Source: Leptothermofonsia sichuanensis E412
GTDB taxonomy: Bacteria; Cyanobacteriota; Cyanobacteriia; Leptolyngbyales; Leptolyngbyaceae
NCBI RefSeq assembly: GCF_019891175.1
Contig: NZ_CP072600.1
Span: 2,852,001-2,916,000 of the forward strand
Length of the DNA stretch: 64,000 bases
Direction of reading: 5' to 3'
The notes beneath the pieces were generated by a model. The model did not search any database and was not told where the DNA came from. It worked only from the letters and a program-made list of their open reading frames with translations. Shown here piece after piece: positions 6,101-53,120 of the stretch (the first letter of the stretch is position 1; the number at the start of each line of letters is the position of its first letter). Position numbers and translations under genes: made by a program.

Positions 6101-9016
6101 ATGGGTTTGTCTGCACCAGAAGAGGGTTTTGCTGTGGCGATTGCCGTTGAAGAATTGTTAACCTCTGAGATTTTGCGCCCTGCCCGCTACCTGGGCAACG
6201 AGTTGGGATCGGTTCACAAGCCGTGGGATAGTGCAACAGTACGATGGGTGCTTACCTATCCAGAAGTGTATGAGGTGGGGGCATCCAACCTGGGGCATAT
6301 TATTCTTTACAACATTCTGAATGCCCAGCCCCGCCAGTTGTGCGATCGCGCCTACCTGCCCGCCCCCGACCTTGCGGCCAAACTCCGCGCCACCCAAACG
6401 CCTCTGTTTGCCGTTGAGTCCCGCCGTTACCTCACTGACTTCGACATCCTCGGTTTCAGCCTCAGCTACGAGCTGGGAGCCACCAACATTCTGGAAATGC
6501 TGCAACTGGCAGGCATTCCCCTCACCTGGAGAGAGCGGCAGAGTGGAGAACCGGGGACGGAGGACCGGGAACCGGGTTCCGAAAGTACTCAGAAACAACT
6601 AACCACGAACCACCAACCACTAGGAACTACCCACCCGATACCTGATACCCGATACCCAGTCCCCAACTCCTATCCCCTCATTTTTGCGGGGGGGCAAACC
6701 GCCACTTCTAATCCCGAACCCTACGCTGACTTCTTCGATTTCATTGCCCTGGGGGATGGGGAAGAACTGCTGCCGGAAATTGGACTGGTGATTGAGGAAG
6801 GCAAAAAAGCTGGCTTAAGTCGGGAAGCGTTGTTGCTGGATCTGGCACAGGTGCCAGGGGTCTATGTGCCTCAGTTCTATGACATGGCAGCGGATGGATC
6901 TGTCCACCCTAACCGTCCCGATGTGCCAGAGCGGATTCTGCGTCGGGTCGCCACCCCCATCCCCGCCTACTCAATTGGGCTGGTGCCCTATGTGCAGACG
7001 GTCCACGATCGCCTGACCGTCGAAATCCGCCGGGGTTGTACACGGGGTTGCCGCTTCTGCCAGCCTGGGATGCTGACCCGTCCTGCCCGTGATGTGGAAC
7101 CGGAGGCCGTCATCGATGCGATCTCAGAGGGAATGCGGGCAACGGGCTACAACGAATTTTCTCTCCTCTCCCTCAGTTGCTCAGACTACCTGGCGCTCCC
7201 TGCGGTGGGCGTGGAGATCAAGAATCGGCTGAAAAATGAGAATATTTCCCTTTCCCTGCCCAGCCAGCGGGTGGATCGGTTCGATGAAAACATTGCCCAC
7301 ATCATCGGCGGTACCCGCCAGACTGGCATCACCTTTGCTCCCGAAGCTGGCACCCAGCGGATGCGGGACATTATTAACAAGGGGCTGACCAATGAAGAAC
7401 TCCTGCGTGGTGTGAAGACCGCCTTTGAACAGGGATGGGACAAAATTAAACTTTATTTCATGATTGGTCTGCCCGGTGAGACGGATGCAGATGTCCTGGG
7501 AATTGCTGAAACTGTTCGCTGGTTGCAGCGGGAATGCAGCGGTCAGGGCAGAAAACGGATCAGCTTCAACCTGACCATTTCCAACTTCACCCCCAAGCCC
7601 CACACCCCCTTCCAGTGGCACTCCGTTTCCACCACGGAATTTGAGCGCAAGCAGGCTCTCCTGAAGGAGGAATTCCGTCGCATCCGGGGACTAAAGGTCA
7701 ATTTCACGGATGTCCGGATCTCTGCAATGGAGGACTTCGTTGGCAGGGGCGATCGCCGCCTCTCTGCCGTTATCCGCCGCGCCTGGGAACTGGGAGCCGG
7801 AATGGATGCCTGGTGGGAAAGCCTGGATCGCGCCTTTAATGCCTGGACCCAGGCGATCGCTGAATCTGACCTGACCTGGAAATACCGCCAGGTCGAAAAT
7901 GGTGAGTGGAACCTATTTCACACGAATGAAGGAGAAAGAATAAAGGATGAAAAAACTCCCATTCCTCCTTCCTACGACGCCCCCCTGCCCTGGGATCACA
8001 TCGACACCGGGATTGACAAGCAGTGGCTCAAGCAAGACCTGCAAAGGGCATTGGAAGCAGCAACCGTACCCGACTGCTCCTTTGAAGGCTGCTCCCGCTG
8101 TGGAGTATGTGGTACAGACTTTGGCCACAACATCGTGATTCCACCCCTGCCAATTCCTCCATTTGAGGGGCACTTTGTCCCCAATCAGCAAAAAGTTCAG
8201 CGGTTGCGGGTGTGGTTGGGCAAACAGGGGGAAATGGCACTGCTCAGTCACCTTGATTTAATTCGCCTGTTTGACCGGGCGGTGCGTCGAGCTGCCATTC
8301 CGATCGCCTTCACAGGAGGGTTTCATCCCGGACCCCGAATCAGCCCTGCCAATGCCCTGCCACTGGGTGTCACCAGCACTGGTGAAATCGTGGACTTTGA
8401 GCTGACTGAGCCAATGGATGGAGCGGACTTTCAGGCAAGGTTGGCGGCTCAACTTCCAGCGGAACTTCCCATCTACCGGGTCGAAACCGTACCTGTGAAT
8501 ACTCCCTCTGCCACCCAACTGCTTGAAAAAGCGGAATATACCCTGGTGGTGAGTGCTACTCAGAACATCGACAGCAATGAATCTGAACCCCCAACCCTGG
8601 AGCAGTGGCAACAGTGGGTTGATGCAGTCAAAGCCAGGGACGCCATCTGGCAGGAACAAACCACCAAATCTGGCAAGCAACAAATGGTGAATCTGCGCGA
8701 TCGCCTCTATAAATTGAGCATAGGGGTAGCGGAGGAGCAGGAGACAGAGGACAGGGGACAGGGGACAGAGCGTCAACAAAAAGCTCTAACCACAGATAAC
8801 CAACCACCTGCAATAGACAACCTGGCACCCGATACCCGATACCCAATACCCGAATCCCGGTTCCTCTCCATCACCCTCCACTATACGGGCAGTTGCCGCA
8901 ACGACGGCACCCTGCTCCGTCCCGAGCAGGTGGTCTATATGCTGGAAAAAGTGGCTGGGCAGGAGTTTCAACTTGGAGCGGTGAGGCGCGATCGCCTGCT
9001 TCTGGCACCAATATAA
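6101..9016 (+). CDS. fused TIGR03960-type B12-binding radical SAM protein + DUF2344 (TIGR03936) domain
   Basis: A 971-residue protein. The N-terminal part (about 20-250) is the cobalamin-binding-like region. The radical SAM core follows with the cluster motif CTRGCRFCQPG (C-x3-C-x2-C) near residue 312. A C-terminal domain from about 690 (LRVWLGKQGEMALLSHLDL, FTGGFHPGPRIS) matches the radical-SAM-associated DUF2344 family, separate in many bacteria and fused in cyanobacteria. The substrate is unknown; the place just upstream of rne and rnhB is a common cyanobacterial arrangement and hints at RNA-related work. Two low-complexity inserts (residues about 146-190 and 878-922) are encoded by intergenic-type repeats. 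The start is uncertain: GTG at 6134 is an alternative. Confidence 0.88.
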   Translation: MGLSAPEEGFAVAIAVEELLTSEILRPARYLGNELGSVHKPWDSATVRWVLTYPEVYEVGASNLGHIILYNILNAQPRQLCDRAYLPAPDLAAKLRATQTPLFAVESRRYLTDFDILGFSLSYELGATNILEMLQLAGIPLTWRERQSGEPGTEDREPGSESTQKQLTTNHQPLGTTHPIPDTRYPVPNSYPLIFAGGQTATSNPEPYADFFDFIALGDGEELLPEIGLVIEEGKKAGLSREALLLDLAQVPGVYVPQFYDMAADGSVHPNRPDVPERILRRVATPIPAYSIGLVPYVQTVHDRLTVEIRRGCTRGCRFCQPGMLTRPARDVEPEAVIDAISEGMRATGYNEFSLLSLSCSDYLALPAVGVEIKNRLKNENISLSLPSQRVDRFDENIAHIIGGTRQTGITFAPEAGTQRMRDIINKGLTNEELLRGVKTAFEQGWDKIKLYFMIGLPGETDADVLGIAETVRWLQRECSGQGRKRISFNLTISNFTPKPHTPFQWHSVSTTEFERKQALLKEEFRRIRGLKVNFTDVRISAMEDFVGRGDRRLSAVIRRAWELGAGMDAWWESLDRAFNAWTQAIAESDLTWKYRQVENGEWNLFHTNEGERIKDEKTPIPPSYDAPLPWDHIDTGIDKQWLKQDLQRALEAATVPDCSFEGCSRCGVCGTDFGHNIVIPPLPIPPFEGHFVPNQQKVQRLRVWLGKQGEMALLSHLDLIRLFDRAVRRAAIPIAFTGGFHPGPRISPANALPLGVTSTGEIVDFELTEPMDGADFQARLAAQLPAELPIYRVETVPVNTPSATQLLEKAEYTLVVSATQNIDSNESEPPTLEQWQQWVDAVKARDAIWQEQTTKSGKQQMVNLRDRLYKLSIGVAEEQETEDRGQGTERQQKALTTDNQPPAIDNLAPDTRYPIPESRFLSITLHYTGSCRNDGTLLRPEQVVYMLEKVAGQEFQLGAVRRDRLLLAPI
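6530..6668 (+). repeat. intergenic-type repeat inside coding sequence, copy 1
   Basis: Within the radical SAM gene, purine-rich words (GGGGACGGAGGACCGGGAACC) run into CAACTAACCACGAACCACC and then a tract of GATACC-type units (CCCGATACCTGATACCC). It stays in frame and encodes a Pro/Glu/Asp/Thr-rich insert. The same words occur between genes in this window. Confidence 0.7.
8730..8865 (+). repeat. intergenic-type repeat inside coding sequence, copy 2
   Basis: A second insert in the same gene with the same order of parts: GACAGAGGACAGGGGACAGG, then CTAACCACAGATAACCAACC, then CACCCGATACCCGATACCC. It is again in frame and lies between the conserved parts of the DUF2344-type domain. Confidence 0.7.
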
Positions 9017-9502: not shown

Positions 9503-11644
9503 ATGCCGAAGCAAATTATTATCGCCGAGCAGCATAGAATCGCTGCTGTTTTTTCCGAAGATCAGATCCAGGAACTTATCGTCGCTACGGGTAGCCATCA
9601 AGTCAGTGATATTTATCTCGGAATTGTAGAAAATGTTTTGCCTGGAATTGATGCGGCTTTTGTCAATATTGGAGATAGTGAACGAAACGGCTTTATCCAT
9701 GTCACTGATTTAGGTCCCCTGCGCAAACGCCGCACGGCAGGGTCGATCACTGAACTGCTGGAACCCCAACAGAAAGTCCTGGTTCAGATTATGAAGGAGC
9801 CAACCGGGAATAAGGGTCCCCGGTTGACGGGTAACATTTCCCTCCCAGGGCGCTACCTGGTGCTGATGCCCTACGGCAAAGGCGTTAACCTTTCCCGCCG
9901 GATTCGGAATGAGAACGAGCGCAATCGCCTGCGGGCACTGGCAATCCTGGTAAAACCAGCCGGGATGGGAATTGTTGTCCGCACGGAAGCGGAGGGAATG
10001 CCAGAGGATGCCATCATTGAAGACCTGGAAGCCCTTCAACGCCAGTGGGAAAACGTGTTGCAGGAGGCAATGACGACCCGTGCTCCAGCATTGCTAAACC
10101 GGGATGATGATTTCATCCAGAAAGTATTAAGAGATGTTTACAGTGCCGATGTTAATCGAATTGTGGTGGACTCCCACACGGGGTTGAAACGGGTCAAACA
10201 GCACCTGATGAACTGGGGCGGCGGTAAGATGCCCCCCGGTGTTTTGATTGACCATCACCGCGATCGCATCCCCATTCTGGAATACTTCCGGGTTAATCCG
10301 GCGATTCGGGAAGCACTAAAGCCCAGGGTGGACCTGCCCTCTGGGGGCTACATTGTGATTGAGCGGACAGAGGCTCTGACTGTCATTGACGTAAACTCCG
10401 GCTCCTTCACCCGTTCCGCGACTGCCCGTGAAACGGTATTGTGGACGAACTGTGAAGCTGCCACGGAAATTGCCCGCCAGTTACGCCTGCGCAATATTGC
10501 CGGAGTCATTGTCGTAGACTTCATTGATATGGACTCCCGGCGGGACCAGTTGCAGGTATTGGAACACTTTAATAAAGCCCTGCGGGCAGACAAAGCCCGT
10601 CCCCAGATTGCTCAACTATCTGAACTGGGGCTGGTTGAACTCACTCGTAAACGCCAGGGTAAGAACATTTACGAAATTTTTGGGCGTTCCTGTCCGACTT
10701 GTGGTGGCATCGGACACCTGGTCCACCTGCCAGGCGAACCAGACAGTGAAGAAGGGGAACCGATTGAACGTCCTGCTGCTGCCATACGGGAACCCCGCAC
10801 CATTGAAGCACGGGGACGACGGGGACGGGATAGCGGGCTGCCGGATATTCCCGGCGTTTCTGACCTGTTCTGGGAAGACCGTAGTGAAGATACGGACGAC
10901 GGCAATGACTTGCAAGACATCGGGCTGAGCCATCCCAACTACCAGGAAGTAGGCGGGAATAATCGTCGTCGTCGCCGTCGCCGGGATGATGATCGCCCAC
11001 CTCGGACTGGCTATGGAGCACCCGTTGCAAAAGCAGAACCAGGGACCGATGCAGACCCCTATGCACCGGCTGAAGAGTCTGCTTTCCCGGTCAGAAATGA
11101 GCGGGGACGGGGACGGGGACGGGGACGGGGACGGGATGGCGATCGCAATGAAACTGGAGGAGCGCCTCCGGAACCGAGCACCCTGCAAGAAGCAACCGAA
11201 GCAGGCTATGGGGACGAGCGGCGGAGTCGCAGACGGGACTCGAACAAACCCACTGAGCCGCCTGAATTTGTGTCTGTGGAAATGACCCCAGAAGAGCAGG
11301 ATGTCTATGCCTGGATGGGTATTTCTCCCCTCACCCTGGCAACCCAGGAAGTGAAAAATCCCAAGTCAGCAATTATTTCCATCGTCCTGCCTGGAGAAGC
11401 CCCGCCCCCGGTTGAATTGGAAACCAGTGCTGCGGTCACGACCTCTGGTGGATCAACTGTGCAGGCACCTGTTCGGCGATCGCCCATCAAACCAGAAGAG
11501 GACGGGGCAATTTCTGCCCCTGAGTTATCCAGCCCGGTGGAAGTCAGCCCGGTGCAAGTCACCTCTGAACCTGAACCATCAGAACCTGAAGGTGCCGTCG
11601 TCCGTCGTCGTCGCCGCCGTTCGTCTGCGGCAGCGGGTGAATAG
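9503..11644 (+). CDS. rne: ribonuclease E (cyanobacterial type)
   Basis: A 713-residue endoribonuclease that starts mRNA decay and processes stable RNAs. The S1 domain occupies about residues 35-120. The catalytic acidic residues lie in ALTVIDVNSGS and VIVVDFIDMD, followed by the zinc-link CPTCGG. After about residue 420 comes a non-catalytic tail rich in Arg, Asp and Pro, with RRRRRRR, an RGRGRGRGRGR tract, and near the end VVRRRRRRSSA. That last peptide matches the element reported in cyanobacterial RNase E to bind PNPase. It is 11 bp upstream of rnhB and probably cotranscribed with it. Confidence 0.96.
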   Translation: MPKQIIIAEQHRIAAVFSEDQIQELIVATGSHQVSDIYLGIVENVLPGIDAAFVNIGDSERNGFIHVTDLGPLRKRRTAGSITELLEPQQKVLVQIMKEPTGNKGPRLTGNISLPGRYLVLMPYGKGVNLSRRIRNENERNRLRALAILVKPAGMGIVVRTEAEGMPEDAIIEDLEALQRQWENVLQEAMTTRAPALLNRDDDFIQKVLRDVYSADVNRIVVDSHTGLKRVKQHLMNWGGGKMPPGVLIDHHRDRIPILEYFRVNPAIREALKPRVDLPSGGYIVIERTEALTVIDVNSGSFTRSATARETVLWTNCEAATEIARQLRLRNIAGVIVVDFIDMDSRRDQLQVLEHFNKALRADKARPQIAQLSELGLVELTRKRQGKNIYEIFGRSCPTCGGIGHLVHLPGEPDSEEGEPIERPAAAIREPRTIEARGRRGRDSGLPDIPGVSDLFWEDRSEDTDDGNDLQDIGLSHPNYQEVGGNNRRRRRRRDDDRPPRTGYGAPVAKAEPGTDADPYAPAEESAFPVRNERGRGRGRGRGRDGDRNETGGAPPEPSTLQEATEAGYGDERRSRRRDSNKPTEPPEFVSVEMTPEEQDVYAWMGISPLTLATQEVKNPKSAIISIVLPGEAPPPVELETSAAVTTSGGSTVQAPVRRSPIKPEEDGAISAPELSSPVEVSPVQVTSEPEPSEPEGAVVRRRRRRSSAAAGE
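11102..11136 (+). repeat. hexanucleotide microsatellite in rne
   Basis: About five tandem GGGGAC units encode the Arg-Gly run of the RNase E tail. Because the period is six, changes in copy number keep the frame. Confidence 0.85.
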
Positions 11645-38382: not shown

Positions 38383-39168
38383 ATGTCTGTCATCAGGCAA
38401 CCGATTGAGCAGGTCGATCCGCCGCGATCGCCCAGAGAAACCCTGCCCACCATGTATGACCTGCCTAGCGAAGATCCGGAGGAACCCGGTTTGCCCGACG
38501 AGTTTCACCTGTGGCAGGCAGAGTTGTGCAGCGCAACTTTCCGCCCGCCAACCTTCTCCCCCGAACAGGTGTTTGTTGCCAGTGACCTGAACCTGTACTA
38601 TGACCCGACCCATACAGGCTGGTATAAGCGACCCGATTGGTTTGCCGTCGTAGGAGTACCCCGGCTTTACGAAGAACGGGACCTGCGATTGAGTTATGTG
38701 ATCTGGCAGGAAGGGGTACGTCCAATTGTGGCGATCGAGTTTCTCTCACCCGGTACCCGTGATGAAGACCTGGGGCAACGGCAACCGCGTGGACCACAGC
38801 CCACAAAATGGCAGGTCTATGAGCAGGTGTTAGGGATTCCCTATTACATCGTGTTCGATCGCTACAACGATGAGTTGCAGGCATTTCAGTTAGCAGGCAA
38901 TCAGTACCAGCCACAAGTGCTGACTAACTCCAGAATTTGGCTACCAAGTCTGGAACTTGGGCTGGGCTTATGGCAGGGCGAGTTTCGAGGGCTAAATCGG
39001 TTGTGGTTACGCTGGTTTGACAGCAACGGAAATTGGATTCCCCTGGAAGCCGAACTGGAACGACAACGAGCAGAGCAGGAACGACAACGAGCAGAGCAGG
39101 AACGACAACGAGCAGAACGGCTGGCAGAGCGATTGCGCCAGGCAGGAATTGATCCGAATGAGATATAG
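38383..39168 (+). CDS. Uma2-family (DUF820) putative endonuclease
   Basis: A 261-residue protein. The DUF820 fold covers about 30-200, with the PD-(D/E)XK-type residues in RPDWFAVVG and VAIEFLSPGTRDEDLG. The C-terminal 40 residues are a charged coiled coil with three ERQRAEQ units encoded by a 21-bp tandem repeat, and the end RLRQAGIDPNEI is typical. This family is amplified in cyanobacteria and probably linked to mobile DNA, but its role is unknown. Confidence 0.85.
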   Translation: MSVIRQPIEQVDPPRSPRETLPTMYDLPSEDPEEPGLPDEFHLWQAELCSATFRPPTFSPEQVFVASDLNLYYDPTHTGWYKRPDWFAVVGVPRLYEERDLRLSYVIWQEGVRPIVAIEFLSPGTRDEDLGQRQPRGPQPTKWQVYEQVLGIPYYIVFDRYNDELQAFQLAGNQYQPQVLTNSRIWLPSLELGLGLWQGEFRGLNRLWLRWFDSNGNWIPLEAELERQRAEQERQRAEQERQRAERLAERLRQAGIDPNEI

Positions 39169-52717: not shown

Positions 52718-52990
52718 TCAACTCAGCGGGAATAGGGATTGGTGAGGGTTTAAGGCCGCAGAAATGGACTCAAAAGCAGAAAGCCCTTGACGCTTACCCG
52801 TATTCACCACAGAACGAATATCGGCGAACAAATCTTTGCCCCACTCGGAGCGAAATCCATTGGTCACCTTGCGAAAAATCACACTCATCCGCAGCGCCTG
52901 TTCACTGGCATTATTGGTCGGCGGAATCGTTGTGTCTGCCAAAAATAGAAACAGATGCTCCCGCAAGTTTCGGTTGCAAAATTGCATGAA
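52718..52990 (-). pseudogene. IS66-family transposase, C-terminal fragment
   Basis: The segment NLREHLFLFLADTTIPPTNN, then ASEQALRMSVIFRKVTNGFR and GLSAFESI is the IS66 DDE-end with its conserved NNxxEQAxR part. Only about 90 residues remain. The first few residues of the open frame (PKF) come from the neighbouring IS21 end, which shows that IS21 inserted into, or recombined with, this IS66 copy. Confidence 0.85.
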
Positions 52991-53120
52991 CTTCGGCACC
53001 TAATTCTCCGGAAACTTCGGCACCGAAGTGACCCCTACTTCGGCACCTAATTCTCCGGATGCCTCGGCACCTGATTCTCCGGAAACTTCGGCAGGTCATT
53101 CCCACCCAACTTCGGCACCT
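52991..53120. repeat. IS21 left-end repeat array
   Basis: Three full units of CTTCGGCACCTAATTCTCC type (52991, 53039, 53063) and two partial ones (53086, 53110). Units differ by a few bases. Such arrays are the likely transposase binding sites. Confidence 0.75.

What the first reader, a model, noticed from the sequence alone, without database searches (positions are those of the whole stretch)
6530..8865. Intergenic-type repeats inserted twice, in frame, in one radical SAM gene
Both inserts have the same order of parts (purine-rich GGGGAC words, an ACCAAC tract, then GATACCC units) and match repeats seen between genes. They add about 45 residues each without breaking the frame. This shows repeats moving into coding DNA and being tolerated at protein surface loops.
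Basis: partly seen in the sequence, partly recalled or inferred. Interest (0 to 1): 0.6.

Follow-up and report, generated by a model that had tools for sequence, protein, structure and literature searches.

The report
Seven-base repeats inside gene loops
A cyanobacterial enzyme gene carries two stretches of seven-base repeats, in frame, in loops of variable length; related species carry different repeats in the same loops, and such paired repeat blocks nearly always run from a G-rich half to a C-rich half, which hints at how they are made.

Summary
The gene (window 6101-9016, 971 aa, TIGR03960 plus TIGR03936) carries two in-frame tracts, 37 and 42 residues over the family medians, built of heptamers: GGGGACA-type, then AACCACC-type, then GATACCC. 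They are 69% alike over 118 nt. They belong to the known cyanobacterial heptanucleotide (STRR-type) repeats. Copies of the repeat also lie in this genome's RNase P RNA gene and in ChlH (twice), RadA, glutaminase and CrtD. The two places, and a third loop near residue 613, are indel loops: the congener fills all three with other heptamers, distant cyanobacteria with others again. Slots persist, words turn over. The gene looks functional (dN/dS 0.10 against the congener).

Beyond the finding: adjacent heptamer blocks run G-rich then C-rich (40:0 within 150 nt; 76:2 at a loose threshold; 5:11 at 150-1000 nt). The two blocks draw on one vocabulary but are not special complements of each other, and no shared ends were seen, which speaks against a classical MITE. 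I suggest, as inference, that both 3' ends of breaks are extended with C-poor heptamers, then joined. Convergent pairs of one word were already reported in Xanthomonas.

The parts
6101..9016 (+). B12-binding radical SAM protein (TIGR03960) fused to TIGR03936/DUF2344, 971 aa; host gene of the inserts
6545..6675 (+). insert 1 (site 1), residues about 149-191, in frame
   Evidence: short loop in most of the 29 family proteins located
6545..6580 (+). G-rich block of insert 1 (GGGGAC-type words)
   Evidence: sequence
6593..6631 (+). ACCAACC-type tract of insert 1
6632..6675 (+). C-rich block of insert 1 (GATACCC units)
8732..8862 (+). insert 2 (site 2), residues about 878-921, in frame
8734..8772 (+). 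G-rich block of insert 2 (GGGGACA units)
8786..8808 (+). ACCAACC-type tract of insert 2
   Evidence: sequence
8826..8869 (+). C-rich block of insert 2 (GATACCC units)
7916..7984 (+). third indel loop (site 3), short here (23 aa) but 53 aa of heptamers in the congener and up to 69 aa elsewhere

Best explanation
Both inserts are composite heptanucleotide repeats of the cyanobacterial STRR kind that occupy two of three length-tolerant loops of a functioning radical SAM protein; that selection keeps them in frame is inferred from the open frame and the low dN/dS. Shown: the repeats are dispersed in the genome, lie in other core genes and in the RNase P RNA gene, have period 7, and differ in words between species at the same loops. 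Shown in two close species, at two sites: block length differs by 70 and 42 nt, units differ in word, and at one site the inner words differ while the outer edges are shared. Shown in samples: paired blocks run G-rich/C-poor then C-rich/G-poor, and the two blocks draw on one vocabulary without being special complements. Inferred (about 0.3): such a pair arises when a break is healed by adding C-poor heptamers, slipped or copied from other arrays, to both 3' ends, which are then joined; later breaks at the same place can renew the words. In genes only in-frame outcomes in tolerant loops would survive.
For: Identity and dispersal. In core genes. Loops: three sites in 110 proteins; pooled period-7 self-match of long loops .384/.382/.358 against .248/.242/.224 in the conserved core. 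Order: 40 RY, 0 YR within 150 nt over five samples (76:2 at the loosest threshold), 5 RY and 11 YR at 150-1000 nt; 33 RY chains, 0 YR; P12 of rnpB 25 of 25 long ones; long loops at site 1 20:0 with one tie and at site 3 41:5, core windows 47-48%. Blocks independent: own pairs are no better duplexes than permuted pairs; inserts fold no better than shuffles. Change in place. Gene alive.
Against: No break or new addition was observed. Differences of 70 and 42 nt fit ordinary slippage. At that site the second species' extra word (GGGAATT) lies on the outer side of the shared word (GGTAATT), not in the centre as renewal from a central break would predict. The related full-length composites look copied as units. 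At site 2 the order is weak (8:4), and trimming 6 codons weakens site 1 to 13:5. In the window's own genome only 1 RY pair passed the strict threshold in 800 kb. Without a periodicity filter there is no order. Related sequences are not independent.
Confidence: 0.75

Rival explanations
1. A small mobile element (MITE or similar, moved by a transposase in trans) with G-rich ends inserted twice in frame; its parts have since drifted.
For: Inserts 1 and 2, and one intergenic stretch, match across several parts at once (69% over 118 nt, 73% over 96); the fixed order of halves could come from element ends; a MITE-like GATACCC element seems to exist in the genome (by eye).
Against: Among 66 flanks of paired elements the most shared 8-mers were repeat-like words (5 of 66), no more than in random controls; a block's own partner is no better a complement than partners from other elements; at compared sites the words differ while the site stays.
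Confidence: 0.2
2. Local growth only: purine-rich codons on one side of a loop and proline codons on the other seed slippage, giving G-rich then C-rich blocks without any mobility.
For: Length differences of 70 and 42 nt, multiples of 7; the flanks of sites 1 and 3 are charged on the left and proline-bearing on the right.
Against: The same words recur at many places of one genome; the same order holds outside called genes (18 of 24 RY pairs in G015) and in an RNA gene.
Confidence: 0.2
3. Selection, not origin, sets the order: on whichever strand is read, G-rich-first arrangements are tolerated or useful in RNA and C-rich-first ones are removed.
For: G-rich first holds on both strands, so transcripts from either strand would have it; P12 of RNase P RNA must pair.
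Against: The two inserts and the intergenic copy do not fold better than shuffles (z -1.03, -0.19, 0.34); own blocks are not specially complementary.
Confidence: 0.2
4. The inserts are functional parts of the enzyme.
For: In frame in a gene under purifying selection.
Against: Most family members read have short loops there and the congener has unrelated letters.
Confidence: 0.03

Closest known systems
Short tandemly repeated repetitive (STRR) heptanucleotides of cyanobacteria, also inside rnpB (Vioque 1997: only the reference seen; Mazel 1990 recalled; an STRR hairpin in a hoxW promoter, PMC2670836, one passage)
   Same: Heptamer units, dispersed, also in the RNase P RNA gene
   Different: Here in protein genes in frame, as mixed-word composites with a fixed order of halves
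GGGNATC / GGGGA(C/T)T heptamers of Xanthomonas and Nostoc PCC 7120 (Rehm 2015, PMC4692102; abstract, passages, sections 11 and 16 read)
   Same: GATACCC is the complement of GGGTATC; 68% intergenic in Nostoc, so about a third in genes; convergent inverted pairs (70 and 75 cases) in two Xanthomonas genomes
   Different: They report only a few pairs in Nostoc; here pairs use different words in the two halves, and the halves are not specially complementary
Rickettsia palindromic elements (review PMC10969869, passages read)
   Same: Repeat DNA read in frame inside unrelated genes
   Different: No strong fold found; words differ between species at one site
Long simple sequence repeats and TAACTGA repeats (MacGregor 2015, PMC4679880, passages read)
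   Same: Heptamers reported as the most abundant class in most genomes; slippage proposed to explain 7
   Different: TAACTGA repeats are single-word arrays, in its main genome mostly just upstream of start codons

Membership tests
Cyanobacterial STRR heptanucleotide repeats | Tandem unit of 7 nt | tested here: met
Cyanobacterial STRR heptanucleotide repeats | Dispersed in many copies | tested here: met
   59 hits against 4
Cyanobacterial STRR heptanucleotide repeats | Same words as the first described STRR families | not tested
   original word list not at hand
MITE | Terminal inverted repeats | tested here: not met
   (paired elements in samples of G000, G015, G121; not the window inserts alone)
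MITE | Target-site duplication | tested here: inconclusive
   no clean empty site of such a pair in 13 close pairs of loci
Rickettsia palindromic elements | In-frame inside genes | tested here: met
Rickettsia palindromic elements | Palindrome with strong fold | tested here: not met
   fold z -1.03 and -0.19
GGGNATC quadruplex repeats | Four consecutive units (the number preferred in that report) | tested here: not met
   two to three GATACCC-type units per insert
GGGNATC quadruplex repeats | Quadruplex formation | not testable with these tools
   needs CD spectroscopy
TIGR03960 / TIGR03936 radical SAM protein (host gene) | Score above the curated cut-off | tested here: met
   573.6 against 462.3 and 198.7 against 71.9 bits

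The most novel reading that the evidence does not exclude
Some cyanobacteria heal chromosome breaks by a telomere-like reaction: both 3' ends are lengthened with C-poor heptamers from a genome-specific vocabulary and then joined, leaving G-rich-then-C-rich scars. The same fragile places break and heal again, so the slots are inherited while the words turn over, and loops of proteins and of RNase P RNA record it.
Probability: 0.2. Interest if true: 0.85.

Novelty: new variant of a known kind. Interest (0 to 1): 0.55.

Why it matters
Heptamer repeats have been known in cyanobacteria since about 1990 (recalled), and the papers read here give no settled origin or function. A near-absolute order of the two halves, words drawn independently in the halves, no shared ends, and different words at inherited sites are constraints that any origin must meet, and they can be tested in laboratory strains. 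For protein evolution, these loops show repeat DNA inside open frames of chlorophyll synthesis, DNA repair and other core enzymes, with different letters in different lineages at one place.

Tried and rejected
MITE reading: looked for shared ends and for own-half complementarity; neither seen (only the top 12 flank words were printed). Hairpin reading of the inserts: folds no better than shuffles. A count of G-rich and C-rich stretches without a periodicity filter showed no order (267 RY, 268 YR in the 400 kb G000 sample, 334:335 in the named loci); with a loose periodicity filter it was 13:2 in the named loci, 3:2 in G000, 3:1 in the RadA loci; the strict period-7 counts are. Empty sites: 13 close pairs of named loci gave 9 listed indels (two changes are each listed in two pairs), none a clean gain of a paired block except a 262-nt intergenic segment with a G-rich left and a C-rich right end. 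Random stretches of ten other families: period-7 blocks numbered 0 to 2 in seven, 4 in G062, 10 in G060, 37 in G121, so dense heptamers are lineage-restricted. On the host family's function two papers were listed, neither about it by title. Searches touching the repeats or their order in print: open-licence papers only; of what they listed, only Rehm 2015 touches the order (convergent pairs in Xanthomonas).

Limits: genes in scripts are called by my own dicodon caller, not a standard annotation; loop anchors located 97, 91 and 57 of 110 proteins at sites 1, 3 and 2; site 1 loops also show period 8 almost as strongly as 7 (.373 against .384); 53 of 355 blocks without a clear skew were left out of the pair counts; the 60 rnpB loci are the best-scoring ones of two searches, P12 was located in 47, and a few of the 25 long ones have only a weak contrast (L309, L252, L277); dN/dS was computed on all aligned codons, loops not removed; taxa are related, so sign counts overstate independence. 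Of 45 GATACCC clusters, 18 fell in called genes; I set aside four as lone hits (L064, L065, L071, L076) and one as a doubtful gene start (L017), leaving 13. By eye 12 of these 13 run G-rich to C-rich; L011 has one block only.

Full report
What was checked. The gene at 6101-9016 on the + strand is one open frame of 971 codons, a B12-binding radical SAM protein (TIGR03960, 573.6 bits) fused to TIGR03936/DUF2344, followed by an RNase E gene.

More than chance. GATACCCGATACCC with at most one mismatch occurs 59 times in the genome (6.43 Mb, one contig), the pattern read backwards 4 times. Searched as DNA, insert 1 finds insert 2 at 69% over 118 nt and one stretch, intergenic by my caller, at 73% over 96 of 151 query bases; the 38 other matches up to E 1 cover at most 48 nt each, single parts rather than the whole. 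Insert 2 finds both again, and otherwise single parts in the list shown. In 400 kb of random stretches, strong period-7 tracts number 18 while periods 4-6 and 8-11 give none and shuffles none; in 800 kb by another score, period 7 gives 47 and the other periods tested 0-9. All three parts are heptamers.

Homologues. The gene is in 42 of 42 genomes of the family. In the 30 loci read, the two places, and a third near residue 613, are the indel loops of an otherwise well aligned protein. With 80 named loci added (110 proteins), loop lengths run 7-58, 8-69 and 14-58 residues at sites 1, 3 and 2 (97, 91 and 57 located); the window has 48, 23 and 58. The congener G025, whose loops are letter-identical to those of Leptolyngbyaceae cyanobacterium HOT.MB2.61 (L102), has 58, 53 and 53 residues made of other words (GGGGCTA, CTCAAAA). 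Argonema (L104), Fischerella (L132), a Xenococcaceae member (L167) and others have their own repeats there, some not heptamers (by eye). Loops of at least 25 aa (23, 49 and 13 at sites 1, 3 and 2) show pooled period-7 self-match of .384.382 and .358, against .248.242 and .224 in the conserved core; at site 1 period 8 is nearly as high.373.

The gene is alive. Against the congener, dN/dS is 0.10 over 949 aligned codons, with dS about 1.3. The AlphaFold2 model (58 sequences, mean pLDDT 68) has pLDDT under 50 at 152-188, 592-621 and 879-920, the three loops, but also in parts of the conserved core such as 284-332, so it adds little; that the loops are on the surface is an inference.

Not alone. 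Of 45 GATACCC clusters, 13 lie clearly in called genes, 10 in sense and 3 in antisense orientation, the two here included. Ten host proteins were scanned; six have family matches: magnesium chelatase subunit H (two clusters in one gene), RadA, glutaminase A, CrtD, a U32-family protein and a molybdopterin oxidoreductase; four have none. One copy is a roughly 60-nt insert in helix P12 of this genome's RNase P RNA (helix name recalled), a gene in which STRR sequences were reported by Vioque 1997 (title seen; paper not held).

A rule of order. In long loops the G-rich half comes first: 20 of 21 distinct loops at site 1 (one tie), 41 of 46 at site 3, 8 of 12 at site 2 (not significant); windows in the conserved core split 47-48%. 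Trimming 4 to 8 codons off both ends leaves 13:5 to 16:2 at site 1 and 35:6 to 37:5 at site 3. In random stretches, adjacent period-7 blocks within 150 nt gave 24 RY and 0 YR in G015, 1 and 0 in G000, 8 and 0 in G121 of another family; with the named loci (2:0) and relatives of G121 (5:0) the total is 40:0, with 9 RR and 18 YY; at the loosest threshold 76:2; at 150-1000 nt apart 5:11. Of the 25 P12 helices of at least 45 nt, all run G-rich to C-rich, a few weakly. The order looks the same from either strand, so effects of coding or replication strand cannot give it; effects that depend on 5'-to-3' order on any strand can.

Halves are independent. In G015 (24 pairs) and G121 (8) the duplex energy of a block with its own partner is no better than with partners of other elements (80% and 70% of permutations at least as good); both halves, read on the G-rich strand, share common words in G015 such as GGGGTGT, AAGTTTT and AGGTGGT. 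At the outer ends of 33 paired elements the most shared 8-mers were repeat-like words, in at most 5 of 66 flanks, as in random controls. Both inserts of the window fold like their shuffles.

Change in place. In two species of one genus with 92-95% identical flanks (G121, G147), one element, in a stretch I take as intergenic, differs by 70 and 42 nt, ten and six units. Nearly all units of its C-rich block differ in word (CACCTGT/CACCAGT). Its G-rich block shares GGTAATT units, and G147 has many GGGAATT units besides, on the outer side. At a second site both edges are shared, while between them G121 has GGATTTT and TCTAAAA blocks and G147 GCAGAAG units. At the first site eight further genera hold blocks of still other words, clearly G-rich then C-rich in L404, L405 and L406, less clearly in the other five, with similar outermost letters (by eye). 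This is two sites, described, not a statistic, and the first does not show the newest word in the centre.

Reading. What is shown fits known STRR repeats in tolerant loops, changing by slippage and by change of words. What gave them their order is inference. Adding C-poor heptamers to both 3' ends of a break and joining them predicts the order, the independence of halves and the lack of ends; a transposon predicts matching ends and target duplications, of which the first was not found and the second could not be tested. The related full-length composites show that whole units can also be copied.

Against known work. Rehm 2015 (PMC4692102) describes GGGNATC-type heptamers, about a third within genes in Nostoc PCC 7120, and 70 and 75 convergent inverted pairs in two Xanthomonas genomes, but few in Nostoc. 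So convergent order is not new as such. Mixed-word, non-complementary pairs in cyanobacteria, their place in protein loops and P12, and change of words at inherited sites were not found in the eight searches made, which cover only open-licence papers and which I saw mostly as listings. Elhai 2008 on very small mobile repeats is recalled and was not read.

Noticed in passing
L078, L079, L019, L069 and others, around the GATACCC units: An intergenic, MITE-like element with GATACCC units in its middle and what look like imperfect inverted ends (GGGTTTGCCACACCC on one side, TGTGGTTAACCCATTTGAAAATTGCTGTAA on the other); seen by eye.
   Followed up: no
L009 1235-1697 (-): RNase P RNA gene with a GATACCC-type insert in helix P12; other cyanobacteria have other repeat helices there.
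   Followed up: yes
window 11102-11135: Six-base repeat CGGGGA, 5.7 copies, inside the RNase E gene, coding for an RG-type run.
   Followed up: no
window 39057-39116 and 52989-53093: Tandem repeats of 21 nt (2.9 copies) and 24 nt (4.4 copies), units divisible by three.
   Followed up: no
L115 762-1024 against L116: 262-nt segment present in one of two close Nostocales loci, with a G-rich left end and a C-rich right end.
   Followed up: partly
L115 about 4295, L141 about 4289, L164 about 4170: Other repeat-like inserts (not heptamers) in or near the third loop of the radical SAM gene (by eye).
   Followed up: no
   Followed up: partly
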